In this document: one piece after another, positions 1 to 59,629 of the stretch
How the letters are laid out: each line of letters starts with the position of its first letter
How positions within the stretch are numbered: position 1 is the stretch's first letter
From: Dasypus novemcinctus
Taxonomy: Eukaryota > Chordata > Mammalia > Cingulata > Dasypodidae
Assembly: GCF_030445035.2 (NCBI RefSeq)
Contig: NC_080685.1
Coordinates: 113,138,432 to 113,202,431 of the forward strand
Length of the DNA stretch: 64,000 bases
Reading direction: 5' to 3'
The notes under the pieces: model-generated
Seen by the model: only the letters and a program-made list of their open reading frames with translations
What the model was told of the DNA's origin: nothing
Databases searched by the model: none
Made by a program: the position numbers and the translations under genes

Positions 1-602
1 AAATTAAAAGTGGAAACTGATGGTGAATCTTATAATTTAGAATCGGGTGAATCTGAGGAGGAGATGGTAAAGTCTCGACCTCTGCCATACGTTCCCTATC
101 CCGCAATCCCACCTATACTTATGCCAGTAGTTAACCCAAGGAAGGAGTTGTTAGAAAAAATAGAGAAACTAATAATACAACAGCAAAAAAAATCCCATAA
201 CCCTGCTGTGTTCCCAGTAACCGAGGCAAATGGGGAACCATCAGGTTTTTCCCCTCATCCTGATATTAACCCTTTCATCAACAAAAGCTCAGTGAAGGGT
301 CTTAATGAAATACCTTCTGTGTATCAGTACAACCCTCTGCACCTACTGAATTGCCTTCTGTTACTAAGCCTAAGTTAGAAATGTTTTCAGATGTTGCCAA
401 TGCTTTGCCTTATGTTAAACAATTGTTATCTGCTTTCCCGGTAACATTACATGCTATTAATACCACCAGATACAAAAATTCTGCAAGGGGTGTTGAGTTT
501 CATCCTGAGCCAAAACCTTTTAAACTATTGAAAGATTTAAAACAGGTAAAAATACTAAATAAAGTCAGTGAAATCAGGCTTGTAAGAAAACTCTGTTGTT
601 AA
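1..602 (+). pseudogene. ERV element 1: gag fragment (linker region and capsid start), decayed
   Basis: This is the middle of a betaretrovirus-like gag that enters from outside the window. Frame 1 is open from base 1 to 378 and encodes an acidic, proline-rich stretch (motifs such as PLPYVPYPAIPP), then a lysine/glutamine-rich segment, as expected between matrix and capsid. Frame 3 takes over at about 351 and carries a capsid-start signature (AFPVT, then FKLLKDLKQ near 525-545), so a frameshift lies at about 330-378. The capsid homology stops after roughly 20 residues, at about 550, and AT-rich non-coding sequence follows. The FPVT and FK-LK-LK motifs recur in the better capsid at 4634, which supports the call. 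Matrix and 5' LTR are not visible. The family is class II (ERVK/betaretrovirus) by motif resemblance only. Confidence 0.65.
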
Positions 603-2910
603 AATGTTAAGTAAGATAAGGAAACTATTCTGGCAGCAACTCTGCAAACCCCCTGCTGTCTACATAACAATGTAGCTGTGGGCTAGTGGGGGCCAATAGA
701 GTTAAGCCACTGGAAAGAGAAAAACGTGGCAATATTTGTGTTTTGTTTTGTTTCCATGCTGATTCTGATTAGGCTTATTTAACCAAAATAATAAAATTAG
801 TACCAAATTTTTATCAAAGTCTAAAAAGAATTTTCAGTTTTAAATCAATAGTTTTCTCCAAAACTTCAAGTCTCAGTATAGTCTTACAGAGTAATAATCC
901 AAAAATGTGTGTTAATGGTCTGTCTAAACTGCAAAATAAAAACTTAACTACATTTATGCTGCTCAAGTTATCCTAACTGATTGCTGATAATTAATAATGT
1001 TTCCAAGCACAAGCTTGCATGTTACAGGCAACATGGATTCCAGAAGAAATCTTAATAAAAACTTAAAAACAGCTATACCAAGAAAGTAAGAATTATGAGT
1101 TAATTGCAAACTGTATGTTTCTGTTAATGTGTTGTAATTGTTCTGTGTTTGTTCGTTCAATGTCAGTGTATATTTTGATACCTCCAGATGGTAATATAAA
1201 TTAATAAAAATTTATAAAAGAGCTCTATTCAAATGGCCAAAAATTAAATAAGCGCTTATATTAATACTTAAGTTTAAATGTTAATAAGATCTCTACAATA
1301 ATAAAAATTGTAAGTCTTGATTAACAAAATTAACTATAAGTCTTCATAAAAAGTTATTCTTGCCTAGATTGAAATAAATAGTTTATTTTTTTCTTCACAG
1401 AATAAAATGAAGAATGTAAAACTTAAATGAATATTAAAAAAAGGTTAAAAGTTTGTGGGAATGCTGACTGAAATTTTAAAAATTTTCCAAAAATTATGTT
1501 TTGTCCTAAAATAGGATGGCTAATTTTTCATAAACTCTTAAAACTTAATTTGCATGCGGCAAGTTATAAAAAGTATTGTGGTAACTTTAAGTAAAGAAAT
1601 GTGTTCTGTAAAGATAAAATTTGTCTTAAAATAATATAATTATAGTCTATATAGTTATAAATAATTATAAGAAGTTTTATAAAGCATTGTTTAAATTAAA
1701 GTGTTTAAACAAACCTGAATTAATAATAATAATAATAATAAAAGGTAATTTTATAACAGGAAAAATTGGCAACAGCCAGCCTCCCCTGCCAACTTGCTTC
1801 TAGGAAACTGTTTCTGATATTGCATGCTACTAAGTATTTAAAGAAAAGTTCATTATTTTAACAAGCTTGTTTAGTGTTAACGGTATTATGTTATAAAAAG
1901 TTTGCTTGATAACATTGTATTTAGGCTATATGGAATGTGTTTTTATTGTTAAGGAAACAGAAGATGATTTTGTCCTAAGATAAAATAATTGATTATTGGA
2001 AAGAGTAGAGTGTGGGACCTGAGTAAATACTGAAAGTGCAAAAGGTTGGTGGAAAAGGAATTTTTATGGGTAAAGTTGAATAAGATTTGATGAGTCTATT
2101 TATAAAATTTTAAAAGCTTTAGTATCAAGTAGTATGCTGATGAAAAGTTAAAAATTTTGTTCTTTCTCAAGGTCTCTCAAATCAATCTGTTTTGGTAAAA
2201 GTTTTTATCCTCAATAATCAGTATACAAAGAAAGTCTGTTTTATCAAAATAGCTCCTTGTGCTTCTTGTGCTCATCATTTCCTTGGTGTTCCAAGAAAGG
2301 AAAGTTTTCTCTCTTTTAAAGGAACATAATGTTCAAAACTGCTTTCTCAAAACCAAATCCTGAACAGTAGCCTTTTATTACAAACTAATTATAAGAGATT
2401 TGTTCTTTTACCTTAAAAGAAAAATTTAAGTAATAATTTAGTTCATTTAATATGTTATAAGTTGAATAAAAGGTGTTTTAAAGTGTTATAAAATTAACAA
2501 GTTTTTTCTTTCCTTTAACCCTCTGTTAATTAAAGTTGTGTGAATAAAAAGTTTCTATAAATGCTTAAAAGTGTATAAAGCTACCAATAGTTCAGCATAA
2601 TATTAAAGAGAAGTACAATGTGGTTATTTATAGTTTTAATTATAATAAAAGAGTATATGTCACAGAAACAACCTCTTACCATTGATTAAAGTAACAACAC
2701 TGTAGTATGCAGCAATCCCAGACACTGCTAGTTTATGGCAAGAAGTTAACGTCCAGCTGTGTTGCTATCACTTTGTTTTAAAACTTGCTAAAACTTTCTG
2801 TAGTGTGTTCTTAAACAACTCAAGCCAGCTGCATTCCTCTATCTGTAAAAAACCCAACAATAGACTTTTGCAGTGCTTTTCAGGGCTGTGTGCATAGCCC
2901 AATCATCTTG
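603..2910 (+). other. AT-rich block occupying the protease/reverse transcriptase position of ERV element 1
   Basis: About 2.3 kb of strongly AT-rich sequence lies between the gag piece and the RNase H piece. There is no open frame of useful length on the + strand and no reverse transcriptase YxDD context that I can find. It contains a short (TAA)n run at about 1722-1742. A recurring phrase close to TTGTCCTAAAATA appears near 1500, 1618 and 1970, and GTTATAAAAAG-type pieces occur several times, so it may have expanded by internal duplication. It could be a decayed non-coding internal region of an ERV family or an unrelated insertion. Confidence 0.5.
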
Positions 2911-2917
2911 TACAGTA

Positions 2918-4135
2918 TTTACTGATAGTAATAGTAATAAAAAAGCAGCATATGTTACTTCTCAAAAAGAACAGGTTTGGCAAACTCCTTATTTGTCTGC
3001 TCAATGCACAGAGCTTTCAGCCGTCATTAAAGTTTTACAAATGTTTTAAGAGCCCTTGAACATTGTCTCTTACTCTAAATATGTAAGTCTTACTGTCAAG
3101 CATATTAAAACAGCTCGTATCTTTGCTACTGATGAGTTATCTTAACTTTTCACTAACTTGCAACATCTCATCAGGTTAAAACAGCATCCTATTTACATTA
3201 CTCACATACGCTCTCATACCTCTTTGCCTAGTCCTATGACAGCAAATAATGCTCAAGCTGATTTATTAGTAGGGTGTTTACAAAATGCTCGTGATTACCA
3301 TGCTTTAACTCACACTAATGCTAAAGGCCTGCGAAATAAATATCAAAAGTTAACAAAACTACAGGCACAAGAAATTATTTGCACTTGTCCTACTTGTGGA
3401 CCACTAAAAGCGGTGCCTTTTCAGGCTGGAACTAATCCCAGAGGCCTGACTCCTAATCAATTATGGCAGATGGATGTTACTCACATACCATCCTTTGGTA
3501 AACTACAATATGTTCATGTTTATATTAACACTTATTCTCATTTTATGTGGGCTACTGCTCAAAGTAGGGAACGGTTTCATCATGTTCGTTCACATCTATG
3601 GTCTGCTTTTGCTGTAATGGGACGCCCCTTGAAAATTAAAACTAATAATGGCCCTTCTTACACTAGTAAGTCTTCTACTTCTTTTTGTTCTACATATGCT
3701 GCTAAGCATATTACTGGTATTCCTTATAATCCTACAGATCAAGCCATAGTTAAAAGCAGCCATCACACCCTAAAAACTATGCTTTTAAAACAAAAAGGGG
3801 GAGATAATGGTATTATAACACCAAAAGATTAATTAGCAAAAGCTTTATTTACTTTACATTTTCTTAATGTTTATAATTCATTAACACCTGCAGAATGTCA
3901 CTCTGGAAAATGTCAAACATCTACAGTAGACACAGGAAATGAAGATCAACCAATATTCTAGAAAGATATTTTAAGCAATGAATGGAAAAAAAGGCAGGAT
4001 TAAAGTAAGGGGGTGAGGCTATGCTCTTATCATTTCAGAAAATGGAGAACAAATTTAGTTACCTGCGAAAAGGATTAAACCCCAGAATGAAGAGATGGAG
4101 TCTTCTACAACTTCTGATGATGGTGATCGTAAGTA
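2918..4135 (+). pseudogene. ERV element 1: pol RNase H-integrase fragment, inactivated
   Basis: The fragment encodes the C-terminal part of a betaretrovirus-like Pol. RNase H begins at FTDSN (2918) and runs through QCTELSAV and AQADLL in one frame. That frame is broken by TAA stops at 3047 and 3143, and the third acidic position reads SYSKYV, with Y where D is expected. Integrase follows in the same frame from about 3158: an HHCC zinc domain (two histidines near 3299-3313, CPTC near 3386-3397), then the catalytic core. The first core aspartate is present (QMDVTHIP, codon 3473). The second is N (TNNGP, codon 3644) and the glutamate is K (codon 3752). A TAA at 3830 ends the long ORF, though the frame carries on to 3960. 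Integrase C-terminal homology (ISENGEQI, then LPAKRIKP) sits at about 4020-4090 in another frame. It is non-functional. Confidence 0.85.
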
Positions 4136-4136
4136 A

Positions 4137-4569
4137 TAAGGAAGCTGCCAGTAATTACACTTATTAGGCCTATGTACCTAAACCGCCATTACTTAGAGTG
4201 TTAACCTAGAAAGATCCATTCTTTCATATATATCTAAATAAAACCCATATATTCCCTGAACCAATTAATAATTGATTGCCAATTAAACCCTATGAAGAAA
4301 GACAAAGAATCGATAACCTCATATTACCATTTGATTATCAACCCTTATGCATTGGTAACCATATTTCCTGTATGTATGTTAAAAATCAGGTCATAATTAT
4401 CTTCAAAAGTAATAATACTCAGTTTATTGTAACTTTGTTTCCCTCTTACAATTTAATCATAACCAAAAATCCTACTTATAATTGTCGGAAAATTAACTAT
4501 AACCCAAAAATGCTCTATTCTATAAAAATAAGGCCTTGCCTCCTAGTAGCCACTACCCCACCCTAAGCC
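4137..4569 (+). pseudogene. ERV element 1: env surface-subunit fragment
   Basis: Directly after the integrase C-terminus, a 96-codon open frame (4276-4566) and the interrupted frame just before it resemble the N-terminal part of a class II (HERV-K/MMTV-type) env surface subunit. The visible phrases are AYVPKPPLLRVLT before a stop, and YQPLCIGN with later N- and C-containing segments. Several stops lie between 4140 and 4276. No signal peptide, cleavage site or transmembrane part follows, because the sequence switches to a second gag at about 4600. The position (integrase end overlapping env start) is as expected for this virus type. The family assignment rests on position and short motifs only. 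Confidence 0.5.
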
Positions 4570-4599
4570 ACTTATACCAGAAACAATCTTTAGATTTCC

Positions 4600-5430
4600 C
4601 CAGATTTCCAACCTATTAAGCAGCTTAGGAAAATTGGAGGCTTTCCCTGTTACAGAAAAGAGGGACGAGGACGATAAGCTCGTAAGAATCCACACCACTT
4701 TCCCGTTTAAAACCTTAAAAGAATTGAAATCGGCCGCTTCTAGCTATGGTCCTACTGCCCCATACACCATAACCATCTTGGAGCAAATCACTGACGGTTG
4801 GCTTACGCCTGCTGACTGGCATACTGATGCTCGAGCCACTCTGTCAGGAGGGGATTACTTGCTATGGAAATCAGAATATGTGGAGCTTTGCAAAGACACA
4901 GCCAGGCGTAATGCCCAGGTAGGCAATGGGTGGAATTTAGACATGCTTACTGGAGAGGGGGATTATAAGGAAAACATGAACCAAATGAGATATGACCCCG
5001 CACTGTTTGCTCAAACTCAAACTGCTGGCCTTAGAGCCTGGAGAAAGCTGCCAGCAAAAGGGGACCTTAGCTCCTCTCTCACTAGCATAAAACAAGGCCC
5101 TGATGAGCCGTTCTCCGATTTCGTGAGTCGACTCTCAATGGCAGCAGAAAGAATATTTGGTAATCAAGACCAAGGAACTGAGTTTGTTAAGCAACTGGCG
5201 TATGAGAATGCCAATGCTGCTTGCCAAGCCACAATTAGACCCTATAGAAAGAAGGAAAACCTGTCTGGCTATATTAGATTGTGCTCAGACATAGGAGCTG
5301 CATATCAGCAGGGTCTAGCAATGGCAGCAGCCCTACAAGGGTTTACAGTTAAACAGTATTTGGCCCAGCAAAATAAAGGAAATGCTTCACCTGTGGTGAA
5401 GAGGGCCACTTTGCTAAAAACTGCAAGGGT
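4600..5430 (+). pseudogene. ERV element 2: gag capsid and one nucleocapsid zinc knuckle
   Basis: This is the best-kept retroviral coding piece. From about 4600 the frame reads into a capsid start (AFPVT at 4638) and stays open to 5635. It covers a nearly complete betaretrovirus (type D-like) capsid: [35 protein letters not shown], then the major homology region with [15 protein letters not shown] at about 5090-5140, and [10 protein letters not shown] near the end. A CCHC zinc knuckle of form C-x2-C-x4-H-x4-C lies at 5383-5424, one base out of frame with the capsid ORF, so a frameshift lies at about 5365-5380. Family members normally have two knuckles and I see one. Matrix and upstream gag are missing. 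The 5' edge abuts element 1 with no LTR. Structural protein only, not expressed intact. Confidence 0.85.
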
Positions 5431-5439
5431 CATAAGCTT

Positions 5440-5640
5440 AGACCAAAAGGGACACTCTGCAGCCGAGCGCTTCTGGCACTCTAACCCTGGCACTAACCAT
5501 GCCACCGTTCTGTGGAAAGACCCAATGGATAATACCTGGCATGGACCCGATCCCGTCCTAATATGGGGCAAGGATCAGTTTGCGTCTATTCAAAGAACTA
5601 GATGCAGCCAGGTGGCTGCCGGAATGATTGGTTAAACAAA
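5440..5640 (+). pseudogene. ERV element 2: integrase C-terminal fragment fused to gag
   Basis: The translation passes from the nucleocapsid knuckle straight into the C-terminal domain of a betaretrovirus-type integrase: AAERFW, then [19 protein letters not shown] at about 5510-5567, then (in another frame) the end motif around DAARWLPE at about 5600. Protease, reverse transcriptase, RNase H and the integrase core are absent. An internal deletion of most of pro-pol therefore joins gag to the end of pol between about 5425 and 5455. At least one frameshift lies at about 5575-5600. The length is far below that of an intact pol. The WHGPDPV motif makes the domain call firm. Confidence 0.8.
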
Positions 5641-5687
5641 TGGATAATAAAAATCTATCCAGGGTAGAGGACTCTCCCTGAGATGAA

Positions 5688-5703
5688 TACTGTTTTCTTG
5701 CAG
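5688..5703 (+). promoter_or_regulatory. Probable env splice acceptor
   Basis: A pyrimidine tract followed by CAG (TACTGTTTTCTTGCAG, with AG at 5702-5703) lies 23 bases upstream of the env leader ATG at 5727. This is where a retroviral subgenomic env acceptor is expected. Inferred from position and consensus only. Confidence 0.55.
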
Positions 5704-5726
5704 GAGAGTAACCAACGCTAAAACCG

Positions 5727-5798
5727 ATGCAGCTGTGCGGCCCCCCTGGAATCCTTCCATGCAGCTTCATCACCATTATTGGAGCCCTTCTGTTATAC
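5727..5798 (+). pseudogene. ERV element 2: env leader (signal-peptide-like)
   Basis: An ATG at 5727, just after the putative env acceptor, opens a short frame with a hydrophobic stretch (SFITIIGALLLY), like a retroviral env signal peptide. The surface subunit that should follow is absent. At about 5799 the sequence switches to a GC-rich ALDH3B-like segment. The leader frame (frame 3) continues through GQIC of that segment before losing register. The call rests on the ATG, hydrophobicity and position between acceptor and transmembrane part. Which virus family's leader this is cannot be told. Confidence 0.5.
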
Positions 5799-5902
5799 GC
5801 CGGCCAGATCTGCGTGACTACGTGCTGTGCAGCCGCGAAATGCAGGAGCGGCTGCTGCCCGCCCTGCAGAGCGCCATCACGTGCTTCTACGGCGACAGCC
5901 CC
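5799..5902 (+). pseudogene. Captured host ALDH3B fragment inside the ERV env region
   Basis: About 104 bp, visibly more GC-rich than its flanks, translate into a stretch very like mammalian aldehyde dehydrogenase 3B1/3B2. AGQICV (5798-5815) matches the active-site loop with the catalytic cysteine (AGQ-x-C-V). Then in frame 2 come DYVLCS, MQERLLPALQSAIT and FYGDSP (5816-5902). I count about 25 of 29 residues shared with the ALDH3B1 sequence I remember for the second part. Between AGQICV and DYVLCS some 7 bases are missing relative to host coding sequence, which shifts the frame. Retroviral sequence lies on both sides: env leader upstream, and the membrane anchor starting LWNGLNG downstream in the same frame as the second part. 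The ALDH enzyme oxidises aldehydes; this piece is far too short to act. Alternatives are later gene conversion or an assembly artefact. Confidence 0.75.
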
Positions 5903-6150
5903 TTGTGGAATGGGTTGAATGGACTGTTACCCTACATACTCCCTCTCTTGGGACCTCTGCTTGGCTTACTAATACTTCTATCGCTAGGACCTATTCTCCT
6001 TAACAAGATTATGGCCTTTTTAAAGCAACAACTGAATGCCATAAAAATGCAGCCCATCTAGGTCCATTATCATAGACTGGACATGGCTGACTACGACAAG
6101 GGGTCTAACCGCTATTTGCAAATGGATCCAGCCGATAGGCCTGATCCCAG
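5903..6150 (+). pseudogene. ERV element 2: env transmembrane-subunit C-terminus
   Basis: The frame starting LWNGLNG encodes a long hydrophobic segment (about 5930-6010, rich in L, I and G) followed by a short basic/amphipathic tail and a TAG at 6060. The downstream frame still reads YHRLD-like cytoplasmic-tail sequence to about 6150. This is the membrane anchor and tail of a gamma/type-D style retroviral env. The surface subunit, cleavage site, fusion peptide and immunosuppressive region are absent. In intact relatives it anchors the envelope spike. Here it directly follows the ALDH3B-like piece in the same frame. Confidence 0.7.
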
Positions 6151-6391
6151 ACCATGAATATCTCGTCAGTATCTTCTGAGGCTCTGGACTGGTTAGTCAA
6201 TGACGGGCAACTGGGCAAGGCATTCTCACGATAGCAACCGCCTAAGACAGAGACGTGGCCTTTCGCTGCCATGGTTCTCAATGATGGGTAAGGTTTAATG
6301 CGGTCATCTTTTTGCCAGCCCTGACCTAAGACAGGCACAGTCCCCCCAGAACGGGCCGTCTTGTCAGTCTTCCTTTTCTGCTAAAAATATT
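6151..6391 (+). other. ERV element 2: non-coding stretch between env and the polypurine tract
   Basis: About 240 bp follow the env tail with no open frame of note on the + strand. The position corresponds to the env-to-LTR untranslated region of simple retroviruses. No accessory gene is recognisable. Confidence 0.5.
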
Positions 6392-6408
6392 AAAGTAAAA
6401 GGGGACCT
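6392..6408 (+). promoter_or_regulatory. Polypurine tract of ERV element 2
   Basis: A purine run (AAAGTAAAAGGGGA) sits immediately before the TG that opens the LTR. This is the usual primer site for plus-strand DNA synthesis. Its position next to a 445-bp TG...CA repeat supports the call. Confidence 0.75.
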
Positions 6409-6713
6409 GTGGGAAGCTGCCTCTGGCACTAGTATTGTATCGGACATCTTGATACCAAACGCCATCTTAGATACTAACCCATTTAGGTTTCTATTCCCCC
6501 ATCCTCACTGAAGTAAGTTAAGTTTCTATTTCTCCTTACGCCACTCCCCCGGGCTCTGATTGGGCACTCCCTAAAGCACGCGAAAGTTTTTCCGCAGACG
6601 TTGCCAAACAACCATCTGTGCATGCATGTGGCGCAAAATTCAAAATCTAGTTACCCAATCATTTACTGACATATGCGCTGTCGTCAGTGCGTACCACCTC
6701 CTTCCTTCCTGGC

Positions 6714-6720
6714 TATAAAT
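6714..6720 (+). promoter_or_regulatory. LTR TATA box
   Basis: TATAAAT lies in the 3' LTR about 20 bp upstream of the polyadenylation signal. This short TATA-to-AATAAA spacing is usual for betaretrovirus-type LTRs. Confidence 0.6.
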
Positions 6721-6737
6721 ACCCCTGATTAACCCTC

Positions 6738-6743
6738 AATAAA
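6738..6743 (+). terminator. LTR polyadenylation signal
   Basis: AATAAA lies in the R region of the LTR, followed by a T/C-rich U5. It would end the retroviral transcript. Confidence 0.6.
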
Positions 6744-6870
6744 CGAGACTTGATCAGAATCCTGTCTTGTCTCCATTCTTTGTGTCTCTTGTCCCCTTTT
6801 CATTCCCACTCCCTCCCTCAGGTCTCGGTCCGACAGACCCGCAGGTCGGGTCAGTATATGTGTTCCCACA

Positions 6871-7165
6871 ATTTTTTTTTTTTAAGTGTAAATAGGTTTT
6901 TAAATTTTTTAGCCTTGTGGGGAACAGTCACTTCCCTCCCTCCTTGTTTTTGGAATATTAGGACCAGGGAATGAACCTCGGACCTTATATGTAGGAAGCC
7001 ATCACTCAACCACTGTGCCACGTCGGCTCCCCTGAGTTGGTTTTTTCATTTGTTTTGCTTGCTGTTGCTGTTGTTGTTTTTTTAGGAGGCACTGGGAACC
7101 AAATCTGGGACGTCCCATGTGGGAAGCAGGTGCTCTACCACTTGAGGACCATATGTCCACCAGTC
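6871..7165 (-). mobile_element. Dimeric tRNA-derived SINE (DAS-III-like), older copy
   Basis: A T-rich left edge is the poly(A) tail read backwards. Two tRNA-like monomers on the minus strand follow. One covers about 6945-7030 (A-box-like CAGTGGTTGAG and B-box-like GGTTCATTCC in reverse) and one about 7083-7165 (GGGAACCAAATCT is the reversed B-box). The same two-unit plan is seen at 50616-50953 and 60328-60672. No clear target-site duplication is visible. Confidence 0.55.
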
Positions 7166-9337: not shown

Positions 9338-9724
9338 AGAGTAAAAAGGGGAAACGGACTTGGCCCAGTGGTTAGGGCATCCGTCTACCACATGGGAGGT
9401 CCATGGTTCAAACCCCGGGCCTCCTTGCTCCGTGTGGAGCTGGCCCATGCGCAGTGCTGATGCGCACAAGGAGTGCCCTGCCACGCAGAGGTGTCCCCCG
9501 CGCAGGGGAACCCCACATGCAAGGAGTGCACCCTGTGAGGAGAGCTGCCCAGTGTGAAAGAAAGTGCAGCCTGCCCAGGAATGGTGCCACCCACACTTCC
9601 CGTGCCGCTGACGACAACAGAAGCGGACAAAGAAACAAGACGCAACAAATAGACACAGAGAACAGACAACCGGGGGAGGGGGGAATTAAATAAATAAATC
9701 TTTAAAAAAAAAGAGAGTAAAAAG
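9338..9724 (+). mobile_element. DAS-type SINE with 11-bp target-site duplication (short form)
   Basis: A tRNA-derived SINE. The head holds an A-box (TGGCCCAGTGGTTAGGGC) and a B-box (GGTTCAAACCC), then a GC-rich body with GTGTCCCCCGCGCAGGGG-type repeats, and an AAATAAATAAATC...A tail. The duplication AGAGTAAAAAG is exact at 9338-9348 and 9714-9724. The insertion interrupts an L1. Open frames across it, on both strands, are incidental. Confidence 0.92.
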
Positions 9725-11107: not shown

Positions 11108-11505
11108 AAAAATTTCCCAGCAGAAACGGACTTGGCCTAGTGGTTAGGGCGTCCATCTACCACACGGGAGGTCCGCGGTTCAAACCCCGGGCCTCCTTGC
11201 TCCGTGTGGAACTGGCCCATGCGCAGTGCTGATGTGCACAAGGAGTGCCCTGCCAGCAGGGGTGTCCCCCACGTAGGGGAGCCCCACGTATAAGGAGTGC
11301 GCCCCATAAGGACGGCCACCCAGGGCAAAAGAAAGTGCAGCCTGCCCAGGAATGGCACCGCCCACACTTCCCATGCCGCTGACGACAACAGAAGCGGACA
11401 AAGAAACAAGACGGAGCAAATAGACACAGAGAACAGACAACCAGGGGAGGGGGGGAACTAAATAAAATAAATGAATCTTAAAAAAAAAAAAAAAATTTCC
11501 CAGCA
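11108..11505 (+). mobile_element. DAS-type SINE with 15-bp target-site duplication (short form)
   Basis: Same structure as the 9338 copy: tRNA-like head, GC-rich body and A-rich tail. The duplication AAAAATTTCCCAGCA is exact at 11108-11122 and 11491-11505. It is inserted in the L1 ORF2 linker just before the reverse transcriptase. Confidence 0.92.
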
Positions 11506-24844: not shown

Positions 24845-26060
24845 CCCTACTTTGGAATTTGTGCTCCTGAGTGTGATGCAGTTGGAGTCAGATGTGACCT
24901 CTCTACACATGCCTCTTCTGTCACTTTTACTAAATCTGTGGTTGGTGCTGGGATTGGTGTATACTCAGGAGACCTGAATCTCTGGACTGTCCATGTGCCA
25001 GCTGGGCCCTGAACTTTAGCAGAGTTGCAACTCCTACTCTCCAGTTCGTTGGACTTACCCAGGTCAGCTAACAGGGAGGTGAAGGTGGTCAGTTACTACA
25101 CCAGGAACTGAGAGAGCCTACAACTGCAAGCAGGAGAATTGCATCCATCAGCCATGTGGGATCTAAGCCTCCTCTCGATATAGAGGTGGAGTGGACATCG
25201 CCATCCAAGGGTCAACAGGATGGGGGAATAGAGTATGGATTAGAGTGGACTTACTGGTATTCTACTATAGAACTATTGTGACTCTAGCAATGGAAGAAAT
25301 TTTATCATTGATGTGGAGACAGTGGCTGTGGGAGTTGCTGAAGGCAGGCAGGGGGAAAAAGAGTGATGTGGGGGCATTTTCAGCACTTGGAATTGTCCTG
25401 AATGATATTTCAGGGACAGATCCTGGACATTTTATTTCCTGCCATAACCCACTGAATGTACTGGAGGAGAGTGTAAACGACAATGTAAACTATAATCTAT
25501 GCGATGCAGCAGTGCTCCAAAATGTACTCACCAAATGCAATGAATGTGCCACACTGATGAAAGAGGTTGATGATGTGGGAGGAATGGGGGTGGATGGGGT
25601 GTGGGGTATATGGGAACCTCTTATATATATTTTAAATCTTTTTTTAAAATTTCTCTCCCCTCCCCCTCCCCCCGCCCCAGTTGTCTGTTCTCTGTGTCCA
25701 TTTGCTGCGTGTTCTTTGTCCGCTTCTGTTGTTGTCAGTGGCACGGGAATCTGTGTCTCTTTGTTGTTGAGTCATCTTGCTGTGTCAGCTCTCCGTGTGC
25801 ACAGCACCAATCTTGGGCAGGCTGCACTCTCTTTTGCGCTGGGCGGCTCTCCTTATGGGGTGCGCTCCTAGCGCCCTACGCAGGGACAACCCATCAGCAC
25901 TGCGCATGGGCCAGCTCCACACAGGTCAAGGAGGCCCGGGGTTTGAACCGCGGACCTCCCATGTGGTAGATGGACGCCCAGCCATTGGGCCAAGTCCGCT
26001 TCCCCTTATATATATTTTAATGTAAAATATATATTTTTAATCTATGTGTCTTTAGAAAAA
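24845..26060 (+). mobile_element. L1 3' untranslated region, xenarthran type, split by a DAS SINE
   Basis: Same repeat as 31560-32715, beginning at GCCCTACTTTGGAATTTGTG. It runs to GGGAACCTC at 25620, is interrupted by a DAS SINE (25621-26020), then resumes and ends A-rich near 26060. The ORF of 226 codons at 25191-25871 crosses repeat and SINE and is not a gene. Confidence 0.8.
25621..26020 (-). mobile_element. DAS-type SINE with 15-bp target-site duplication (long-body form), minus strand
   Basis: The reversed tail is at the left (AAATCTTTTTTTAAAATTTC) and the tRNA-like head at the right, ending CCAAGTCCGCTTCCCC. The duplication TTATATATATTTTAA is exact at 25621-25635 and 26006-26020. It carries the extra body segment (ACACAGATTCC-like, read in reverse) also found in the 59202 copy. 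Confidence 0.92.
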
Positions 26061-54030: not shown

Positions 54031-56210
54031 ATGCTGTGGGCTCTCGCAGCCTTGAGGGCTAAGGAGGAGACCCACTTCAAGAACTATCGGTTCCTAGAAC
54101 CACAGGCAAGGGTGCCTTTTGTGATCAAATTAGCATGGCACGTCCTCAGCAGCCACGGCCCCAGCAGCCTCTGCGTGCGCTCCAGAGAAGTGAGCATAAT
54201 GAAGAGCTTGAGCCATCCCAACATCATCCGGCTCTTTGAAATCATTGACAGCACCAAGGAGCTCTACCTCATCATGGAGTACGCCCATGGAGGTGATCTC
54301 TTTCAGTACTTGGTGGCCCATGACCCTCTATTAGAAGAGGAAGCCCGAGCGAAATTTCACAACAAGCAGTATCTGCTGTCCAGTACTGTCACCAGAAATT
54401 TATTTCCCACAGAGAATTGAAATCAGAAGAGCAGCTTTTGGGTGCTGCTGGGAATGTTAAACTTGCCGATTTCGGCTTGAGTAAGACATTTGACATGGAC
54501 TAGGAGCTGATAGCCCTGTGCGGCACTCCCTGTTGTACTGCCCCCACATCTTTAAGGGGCACACGTACGATGGGCCGGCCATGGGCGTCTGGAGCCGGGG
54601 GGTGATTCTGTACACCATGGCCAGTGGGGACGTCCCTTTCACTGCCCAGAGCTTCCAGGCCCTGCGGGAGCAGGCGCCCAGCGGGGAGCTCTATGTTGCA
54701 GACTGTCTGTGGACTGTATAAACCACACCAGAAAGTGCCTCGCAGCGGATGCCTGCAAGAGGACAAAACCACGGGATATAAAGAGCGACCTGTGGGTACA
54801 TACGGGCTAGCAGGACAAAGAACTGAAGCCCTCTGTGGAGCCCCTCCCAGATGGCCAGGGCCCCTGCTGAAGAGCAGTGACTACACCAGAGAGAGGTAGA
54901 GGAGTCCCTGGCTAATGTGAAACATGACGAGATCATGGCCATCTATCTCTTGCTGGGCGACAGCAGATGGGAGCAGGAGACCACCAGCTCCCCGCAGACC
55001 CAGCCCTCAGCTGGCAGAGACGCAGCTGCCCTCCTTCCCCACACCACGTGGAGCAGCACAGCGTGTCTGTGCAGCCCAGGTGGTGAAGAGGCAGCGAACC
55101 TGCCCTTCTCCCCCCTGATTGCTTGTCTACAGCCCTTCAATACAGGGAGAAGGACCGGAATTCAGGGAGGGAGGCTTGGGGCCTGAGCAACACATACGCC
55201 AGCCCCCTGCCAGGCCAGGAGTGGGAGAAGCCCACTCTGTGCCCTCCCACCAGCGCCTGCCCCTGCCCCGGTCAGCCCTGCAGCTCTCCTCTCCTGCAGA
55301 GGACCAGCCTCAGCCAGGCCTTCATGGATGAGGGCTGGGAGAGCCAGCGCACACCAAAGACAGGAGCCTCCAAGACGTCGGCTTCCCCCACAGGGCCCAG
55401 GCCCTGCCTCATGTGCACCAGCAGCCCCGGATGGCCTGGGTGAGGCCCAGCCAGGCCGCCAGGCCCTGCCCCAAGGAGCGTCGTCAGGAGGGTCCCCTGC
55501 TTGGCCCTGTGGTCACCGCCTCCTCCCAGGTCATCTGCAGCAGGGATGGAGGCCCCGAAGGAATCACTTCTTTGCCCACTGTTGGCACGGGTGAAGCCAT
55601 CCCTGGGGGAACACCCCAAGTCAGGGGCAAGCAGCAGAACTTGCCCTGCAGGGGGAGGTCTGCCTCCCCTCCCCCATCAGCCAGGGCCAGCTGGGCACCT
55701 TGAACATTACATGGCTTCCATCCAGCATTGCGTGTGCCTAGGGTGCACTGGCAAGGAGCAGCACCAGCGGGGGAGGAACGACCACGGGGGCCCTCAGGGG
55801 GCCCTGCCATGGTCACGGGACCTGAAGTGGAGGACGAAGGTCATTAGCTCCCTGGAGCCCCATGAGATGATGCGGAAGATCCGCCAGGTGCTCGATGCAC
55901 ATGGGAAGAGTCCAGGCTGCTCTCAGTAGATGTTCTGTGGAGGAACAAGTTTATGCGCCACACGGAGCCTGAAGGACAGTGGGGGAGATGAGCAGGTGTG
56001 GACACAGCAGCTGTAGTTGGACCTGGACAACAGTTTCGGCTGCTGGGCACGAGTGCCATGTGTGCTGGAGGGCTTAGGGCATGGAGGATGGAGGTCTGCA
56101 GTGCTGGGCGGGTCTCAGCGGGTCCACCTGCAGAGGAGGTCCTCATCCACAAGACCTTCCAAGCATTGGCTCCTAAGATCCAGGAGCTTCAGCTTCCAAA
56201 GGTGAAGGGA
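54031..56210 (+). pseudogene. MARK-family kinase processed pseudogene
   Basis: This is an intronless, broken copy of a microtubule-affinity-regulating kinase (MARK/Par-1) mRNA, with the domain order kept. Kinase N-lobe: REVSIMKSLSHPNIIRLFEI and LYLIMEYAHGGDLFQYLVAH (54188-54320). Catalytic loop and DFG (54387-54480): HRE where HRD is expected, DFG kept at 54468-54476. Then a TAG at 54501. The glycine loop is unrecognisable and the VAIK lysine segment is missing. A C-lobe remnant (VILYTMASGDVPF-like) follows, then UBA-like DEIMAIYLLLGD (about 54925-54960), a spacer, and the KA1 domain: SLEPHEMMRKIRQVLDAHG (about 55850-55905), with its end at about 56136-56205. Several frameshifts separate these parts. 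An AATAAA lies at 56383 but no poly(A) tail is visible. The parent kinase phosphorylates microtubule-associated proteins; this copy cannot encode one. Which MARK paralogue it came from is unclear. Confidence 0.88.
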
Positions 56211-59201: not shown

Positions 59202-59629
59202 CTTTGATAGGCAGAGGACTTGGCCCAGTGGTTAGGGCATCTGCCTACCACATGGGAGGTCTGCAGTTCAAACCCTGGGCCTCCTTGACCCATGTGGAGC
59301 TGGCCCATGCGCAGTGCTGATGCACGCAAGGAGTGCCCTGCCACGCAGGGGTGTTCCCCAGAAAGGGGAGCCCCACATGCAAAGAGTACACCCCGTAAGG
59401 AGAGCCACCCAGCATGAAAGAAAGTGCAGCCTGCCCAGGAATGGTACTGCACACATGGAGAGCTGACACAACAAGATGATGCAACAAAAAGAAACACAGA
59501 TTCCTGTACCGCTGACAACAACAGAAGCGGACAAAGAAGACACAGCAAATAGACACAGAGAAAAGACAACTGGGGTGGGAGGGGGAAGGGGAGAGAAATA
59601 AAGAAATCTTTAAAAAAAAAACTTTGATA
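59202..59629 (+). mobile_element. DAS-type SINE with 8-bp target-site duplication (long-body form)
   Basis: The tRNA-like head (TGGCCCAGTGGTTAGGGC, GGTTCAAACCC at one mismatch), GC-rich body and A-rich tail are all present. The duplication CTTTGATA is exact at 59202-59209 and 59622-59629. It is about 50 bp longer than the 9338 copy, through an extra segment after ATGGTACTGCACACATGG. Confidence 0.9.

What the first reader, a model, noticed from the sequence alone, without database searches (positions are those of the whole stretch)
5799..5902. Host ALDH3B coding fragment captured inside a retroviral env region
Seen directly: a GC-rich segment of about 104 bp lies between a retroviral env leader and a retroviral env membrane anchor, and its translation (AGQICV; then DYVLCS, MQERLLPALQSAIT, FYGDSP) is not retroviral. 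It matches my memory of ALDH3B1/ALDH3B2 around the catalytic-cysteine loop, about 25 of 29 residues in the second part. Established: retroviruses can transduce host exons by template switching, as in acutely transforming viruses. Inference: the ERV replaced its surface subunit with a piece of host mRNA before it inserted. I know of no described ALDH-carrying ERV, but I could not search.
Basis: partly seen in the sequence, partly recalled or inferred. Interest (0 to 1): 0.88.

Follow-up and report, generated by a model that had tools for sequence, protein, structure and literature searches.

The report
ALDH3B mRNA scrap inside fossil retrovirus
A fossil retrovirus in a mammalian genome carries about 100 bases that look copied from the messenger RNA of a host aldehyde dehydrogenase gene, patched into the place where most of its envelope gene was lost; such host patches are a known side effect of retroviral copying.

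Summary
Window 5799-5896 (98 bases) encodes a piece of ALDH3B around and just after the catalytic cysteine. All 182 ALDH proteins gathered here (named ones are ALDH3B) match it at 5816-5902, tblastn E 5e-12 to 4e-7, with 19 to 26 of 27 core residues identical. Retroviral sequence lies on both sides in viral order: integrase end, env-like leader, ALDH, env membrane anchor, 3' LTR. Four unnamed relatives show the envelope sequence that should precede the anchor; here ALDH stands instead.

The piece runs unbroken through the place where the sister gene ALDH3A2 has intron 5, so the donor was most likely spliced mRNA. It has no poly(A) or mRNA 3' end, against an L1 retrocopy. Best reading: reverse transcriptase bridged a large env deletion with host mRNA ('patch repair'), leaving a defective provirus.

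Not seen: the host's own ALDH3B DNA, other copies, the 5' LTR, a relative for the left edge. The genome search did not complete in 11 tries. The process is known; the paper searches run did not show this instance.

The parts
5693..5703 (+). polypyrimidine-plus-AG stretch that looks like the env splice acceptor
   Evidence: sequence; resemblance only
5727..5798 (+). env-like leader: ATG and a hydrophobic signal-like peptide, in frame with the first ALDH residues
   Evidence: hydropathy up to 2.51 over 12 residues, printed before that script failed; no relative confirms it as env
5799..5815 (+). ALDH3B segment, first part: AGQICV, the catalytic-cysteine hexapeptide
5816..5896 (+). ALDH3B segment, second part: DYVLC...FYGD, 27 codons, after a small frame-shifting deletion
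5881..5882 (+). place that corresponds to the ALDH3A2 exon 5/exon 6 junction; no intron present
   Evidence: ALDH3A2 798+1 splice donor; alignment; position
5897..6061 (+). env transmembrane anchor and cytoplasmic tail with stop codon
   Evidence: PF00429 E 1.1e-9 on the frame 5735-6058; relatives P0001-P0006
5507..5572 (+). integrase C-terminal DNA-binding domain, the remnant of pol
   Evidence: PF00552 E 1.3e-5, 24.8 bits, cut-off 21
5383..5424 (+). CCHC zinc knuckle (nucleocapsid-like), in another frame than the capsid
4634..5371 (+). gag capsid, type-D-like betaretrovirus
   Evidence: Pfam Gag_p24 E 9.8e-43; PDB 6hwi_A E 1.5e-90 and 2kgf_A E 1.2e-54 on 4634-5452
6408..6870 (+). 3' LTR of 463 bases, TG...CA with matching inverted ends, preceded by a purine-rich tract; TATA box at 6714 and AATAAA at 6738
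   Evidence: no second copy in the window

Best explanation
This is a patched deletion in a defective type-D-like betaretroviral provirus. While the genome was being reverse transcribed, the enzyme lost its place in env. It copied about 98 bases from a spliced host ALDH3B mRNA that was in the particle, then returned to the viral template just before the membrane anchor. The surface subunit and most of the transmembrane subunit were skipped, and the host scrap served as the bridge. The product integrated and has since decayed. It probably has no function as an enzyme or as an envelope. Shown: ALDH3B identity, viral sequence on the right and viral genes on both sides in order, no intron at the ALDH3A2 position, no poly(A) at the right join. 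Inferred: mRNA as donor (from the intron position of a sister gene), reverse transcription as the step, and the defective state at the time of insertion.
For: ALDH3B identity. Viral flanks: integrase end at 5507-5572 and env anchor, LTR. Relatives P0001, P0002, P0004 and P0006 carry a CC motif and a heptad-like ectodomain directly before the anchor; the ALDH piece stands there in the window. Spliced donor: ALDH3A2 has its exon 5 splice site at 798+1 (passages of PMC6114270); aligned on 4qgk this falls between T269 and R270 of armadillo ALDH3B1, that is window 5881/5882, and the window reads straight on for five more ALDH codons. ALDH3B1 and ALDH3B2 are said to share precisely conserved exon boundaries (passage of PMC6941052). 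Codon third positions are G or C in 26 of 27 in the piece, against 26 of 53 in the anchor frame, stop included. Mechanism precedent: 'patch repair' with host sequences across nonhomologous junctions (passages of PMC4997597). Each joint keeps ALDH's own frame on its side (5727 and 5799 share one frame, 5816 and 5903 another).
Against: The host's own ALDH3B DNA, the intron in that species and the 5' LTR were not seen. The ALDH3B boundary at codon 269/270 itself was not seen: gaps between predicted ALDH3B isoforms fall elsewhere (about codons 54, 91, 159/160, 316, 372), two of these agreeing with ALDH3A2 boundaries that I only recall. The left viral edge is not backed by a relative. P0003 and P0005 have anchor matches that begin at Pfam profile position 511, against 512 here, so the deletion may be older than the patch, or a feature of the RNA may favour joining there.
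Confidence: 0.8

Rival explanations
1. An L1-made retrocopy or other DNA fragment of ALDH3B landed in an old provirus after integration, together with or followed by an env deletion.
For: The window holds repeats and an L1-like open frame (the L1 reading is recalled), and retrocopies are common in mammals (recalled).
Against: The piece is an internal 98 bases with no 3' UTR or poly(A), and it stands exactly across a missing env stretch with both joints in frame. In-frame joints arise by chance 1 time in 9, so that last point is weak.
Confidence: 0.1
2. Genomic capture: a provirus near or inside an ALDH3B gene picked up exon sequence by DNA rearrangement or repair.
For: DNA repair can leave filler pieces of distant sequence (recalled).
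Against: The piece crosses an intron position of the sister gene ALDH3A2 without an intron.
Confidence: 0.04
3. Assembly artefact: a chimeric contig joins an ALDH3B transcript or retrocopy to a provirus.
For: Cannot be excluded without reads; the genome search gave no answer (11 calls).
Against: A chimera would need two false joints about 98 bases apart that return to the same provirus in order.
Confidence: 0.03
4. A gene-carrying lineage: the provirus belonged to a replicating defective family that kept a leader-ALDH-anchor fusion protein. This overlaps the best explanation (a patch that then spread) and is the same as the novel case, so it carries the same odds.
For: Both joints keep ALDH's own frame; captured host mRNAs, one of them in place of env, are described in crocodilian proviruses (passages of PMC4299795).
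Against: None of the 30 candidates that one search drew from 5.77 billion proteins was reported with both parts (6 passed, none with ALDH), and viral contigs gave nothing. The piece is too short to be an enzyme and its frame is broken now.
Confidence: 0.06

Closest known systems
Host-RNA patch repair in retroviral nonhomologous recombination, reviewed in PMC4997597 (abstract start and passages seen)
   Same: A host sequence bridges a nonhomologous junction made by reverse transcriptase; the host sequence need not be linked to the provirus.
   Different: The passages describe experimental recombinants and HIV-1; this is a fossil provirus in a mammal with an ALDH3B piece. Microhomology could not be scored, because the donor DNA is not at hand.
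Captured nectin3 and KIT-ligand mRNAs in crocodilian endogenous retroviruses, PMC4299795 (abstract parts and passages seen)
   Same: Host mRNA inside a provirus; with nectin3, at the cost of env.
   Different: There long coding sequences are kept in several insertions (six for nectin3) and purifying selection is reported for KIT-ligand; here a scrap of about 33 codons, broken, in the one copy seen. KIT-ligand was captured without loss of a viral domain.
Deletions with insertions in retroviral replication, PMC3187697 (passages seen)
   Same: Deletion with a filler, made by template switching.
   Different: The passage lists them under intramolecular switches; the filler here matches a host gene.
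Acutely transforming retroviruses (v-src, v-sis), PMC13297096 (passages seen)
   Same: Host coding sequence inside a retroviral genome; the v-sis virus depends on a helper virus.
   Different: No function is carried here.

Membership tests
ALDH3B-derived sequence | closer to ALDH3B than to the sister enzymes ALDH3A, with the catalytic-loop motif | tested here: met
   19 to 26 of 27 identical to 182 ALDH3B-type proteins, 8 or 9 of 27 to three ALDH3A chains; other ALDH classes not compared
Retroviral host-mRNA patch or transduction | host coding sequence without its intron | tested here: met
   reads through the ALDH3A2 intron 5 position; the intron in ALDH3B of this species is inferred, not seen
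Retroviral host-mRNA patch or transduction | viral sequence on both sides, same strand, in viral order | tested here: met
   the leader directly at the left edge has no relative to confirm it
Retroviral host-mRNA patch or transduction | lies inside an LTR-bounded provirus | tested here: inconclusive
   3' LTR at 6408-6870; no second copy in the window, which starts inside another provirus
Retroviral host-mRNA patch or transduction | same joints in further copies | tested here: inconclusive
   source genome did not complete (11 calls); no hit in viral contigs or among the protein candidates, collections where copies would not be expected
L1 processed pseudogene | poly(A) tail and mRNA 3' end | tested here: not met
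   ALDH match ends inside the coding region and viral codons follow at once
Gene-carrying (transducing) retrovirus | an intact, potentially functional host gene | tested here: not met
   about 33 codons, with a frame-shifting deletion
Type-D-like betaretrovirus provirus | type-D capsid with a gammaretrovirus-type env anchor | tested here: met
   capsid matches 6hwi_A and 2kgf_A best (that these are Mason-Pfizer monkey virus is recalled); anchor matches PF00429

The most novel reading that the evidence does not exclude
A defective type-D-like retroviral lineage in a xenarthran-like mammal that spread through the germ line with a leader-ALDH-anchor fusion, so that a fragment of a host enzyme's active-site loop was displayed on membranes; the same joints would then be found at several loci, with the frame once open.
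Probability: 0.06. Interest if true: 0.65.

Novelty: new member of a known kind. Interest (0 to 1): 0.42.

Why it matters
Retroviral particles carry a little host mRNA, and host sequence can be patched into viral DNA (passages of PMC4997597). In the passages I read, the only captured mRNAs described in endogenous proviruses are two in crocodilians. If the reading holds, this locus records which mRNA was in a germ-line particle and where the enzyme jumped. In two unnamed relatives the env anchor match begins at nearly the same position, so the site could be checked as a recurrent jump point.

Tried and rejected
Search of the source genome for the ALDH piece: asked 11 times in the same form, never answered. 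Viral contigs: six scans gave no confirmed relative; ten stretches, thirty-eight and two matched a peptide pattern but failed tblastn, and searches gave 0. Proteins: one search gave 6 hits of 30 candidates, none with ALDH (sequences). An ALDH3B paralogue or species could not be named from 27 residues: gundi 26 of 27, armadillo ALDH3B1 24, two-toed sloth ALDH3B2-like 23, tamandua ALDH3B1 21. Pfam on the frame 5735-6058 gave env only, not ALDH. Rfam: 0 matches at gathering scores; tRNA genes: 0. NCBIfam on the env frame: 0. Papers: 10 searches; 'ALDH3B1' with 'endogenous retrovirus' gave 0 papers; (14 papers, 10 listed) only one listed paper holds 'aldehyde dehydrogenase', on alcohol and liver disease. 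These cover open-licence papers only. Considered and rejected: splicing of an ALDH exon into env, because the right ALDH end lies five codons inside an exon by homology; that the left end is also inside an exon is recalled.

Mended after a check against the calls (one search was made for it): length 98 bases; the source of the best stray tblastn rows; dUTPase matches told as below cut-off; one rival's odds raised from 0.03 to 0.06 only to agree with the novel case, which is the same claim.

Full report
What is there. Window 5799-5896 (98 bases) is a piece of an ALDH3B coding sequence. The first part encodes the hexapeptide around the catalytic cysteine, the next 81 bases encode 27 residues that follow it in ALDH3B. 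Between them a small deletion shifts the frame. A second search with that region of the best match (269 hits, 120 listed) brought the set to 182 ALDH proteins, and the 27-residue core is 19 to 26 of 27 identical; three ALDH3A chains share 8 or 9. All 182 hit 5816-5902 by tblastn, E 5.5e-12 to 4.3e-7. Four of them against 100 resampled windows reached at most 29.6 bits, against 48.1 to 59.7 in the window. The same run, with filters off, gave 1004 rows elsewhere, 12 of them with E up to 1e-3 and the best 1.5e-6; they fall in GC-rich stretches and come from three proteins with odd, largely proline-rich parts. The DNA of the piece occurs once in the window.

What surrounds it. Upstream lie a type-D-like capsid (4634-5371), a zinc knuckle in another frame (5383-5424) and the end of integrase (5507-5572). 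Only about 80 bases lie between knuckle and integrase end, so protease, reverse transcriptase and most of integrase are gone. Then come a splice-acceptor-like stretch and an ATG with a hydrophobic leader (5727-5798). Downstream the env anchor follows at once (5897-6061), then a purine-rich tract and an LTR of 463 bases with matching ends (6408-6870). Four unnamed relatives (P0001, P0002, P0004, P0006) show what should stand before the anchor: a CC motif and a heptad-like region. That, and the surface subunit, is missing here.

Edges. On the right, one of six relatives has SP and five have NP before the anchor; of 181 ALDH proteins none has SP, 175 have DP or EP and 6 NP. So the join most likely falls after FYGD at 5896, though a changed ALDH residue is not excluded. 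On the left, the ALDH match ends at AGQ; the leader before it is hydrophobic and in the same frame, but no relative was found to confirm it.

Donor. A case report on ALDH3A2 gives its exon 5 splice donor at 798+1 (passages of PMC6114270), after codon 266. In the alignment of armadillo ALDH3B1 with the ALDH3A2 structure 4qgk (the chain is one residue ahead of the native numbering, by my recall of the native start) this is the T269/R270 boundary, window 5881/5882. The window goes on for five ALDH codons beyond it. A paper says that ALDH3B1 and ALDH3B2 have precisely conserved exon boundaries (passage of PMC6941052). I did not see the ALDH3B boundary itself: gaps between predicted isoforms fall elsewhere, two of them, near codons 160 and 316, where I recall ALDH3A2 boundaries. 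So the donor was most likely spliced RNA.

How it arose. Host mRNAs enter retroviral particles in small amounts, and reverse transcriptase can use host sequence as a patch across nonhomologous junctions (passages of PMC4997597). One excursion onto an ALDH3B mRNA explains what is seen: no poly(A), no intron, one env deletion, viral order kept. Both joints keep ALDH's frame on their side, which chance gives once in nine, so I make little of it.

A pattern beside it. P0003 and P0005, two ORFs from unnamed contigs that share their first part and so may be one lineage, seem to join the end of a dUTPase to the env anchor. The dUTPase matches are weak (E 0.0042 and 0.0061, below Pfam's cut-off), and so is P0005's env match; the anchor matches begin at profile position 511, against 512 here. 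P0001 and P0004 have a leader-like start close to the CC motif, which looks like a loss of the surface subunit. Env deletions thus seem to recur in relatives. A shared endpoint may be a jump site, a splice site or shared descent; I could not tell.

Where. A repeat at 6960-7160 reads like the DAS SINE of armadillos (recalled, not searched), so the host is probably a xenarthran. The ALDH residues do not settle the species.

Verdict. It is a new example of a known process; interest 0.42. It would rise if the same joints were found at several loci.

Noticed in passing
window 1-4570 against 4634-6870: A second, AT-rich (G+C 0.32) provirus with a retroviral integrase at 3158-3832 (best chain 5cz2, MMTV by recall) abuts the type-D-like one at about 4570-4634 with no LTR seen between them; 4009-4566 reads env-like to me but has no Pfam env match. 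The two could be one multi-parent recombinant.
   Followed up: partly
P0003, P0005 against window 5897: Two ORFs from unnamed contigs seem to join a dUTPase end (below Pfam's cut-off) to the env anchor at nearly the same position as the ALDH joint here.
   Followed up: partly
window 6960-7160: SINE that reads like the armadillo DAS element (recalled); suggests a xenarthran genome.
   Followed up: no
window 54031-54420: Open frame with part of a protein kinase domain (PF00069 E 5.7e-13), perhaps an exon or a retrocopy.
   Followed up: partly
window 9351-9712, 11123-11489, 25668-26007, 59216-59620: A family of dispersed repeats, 67-88% alike.
   Followed up: no
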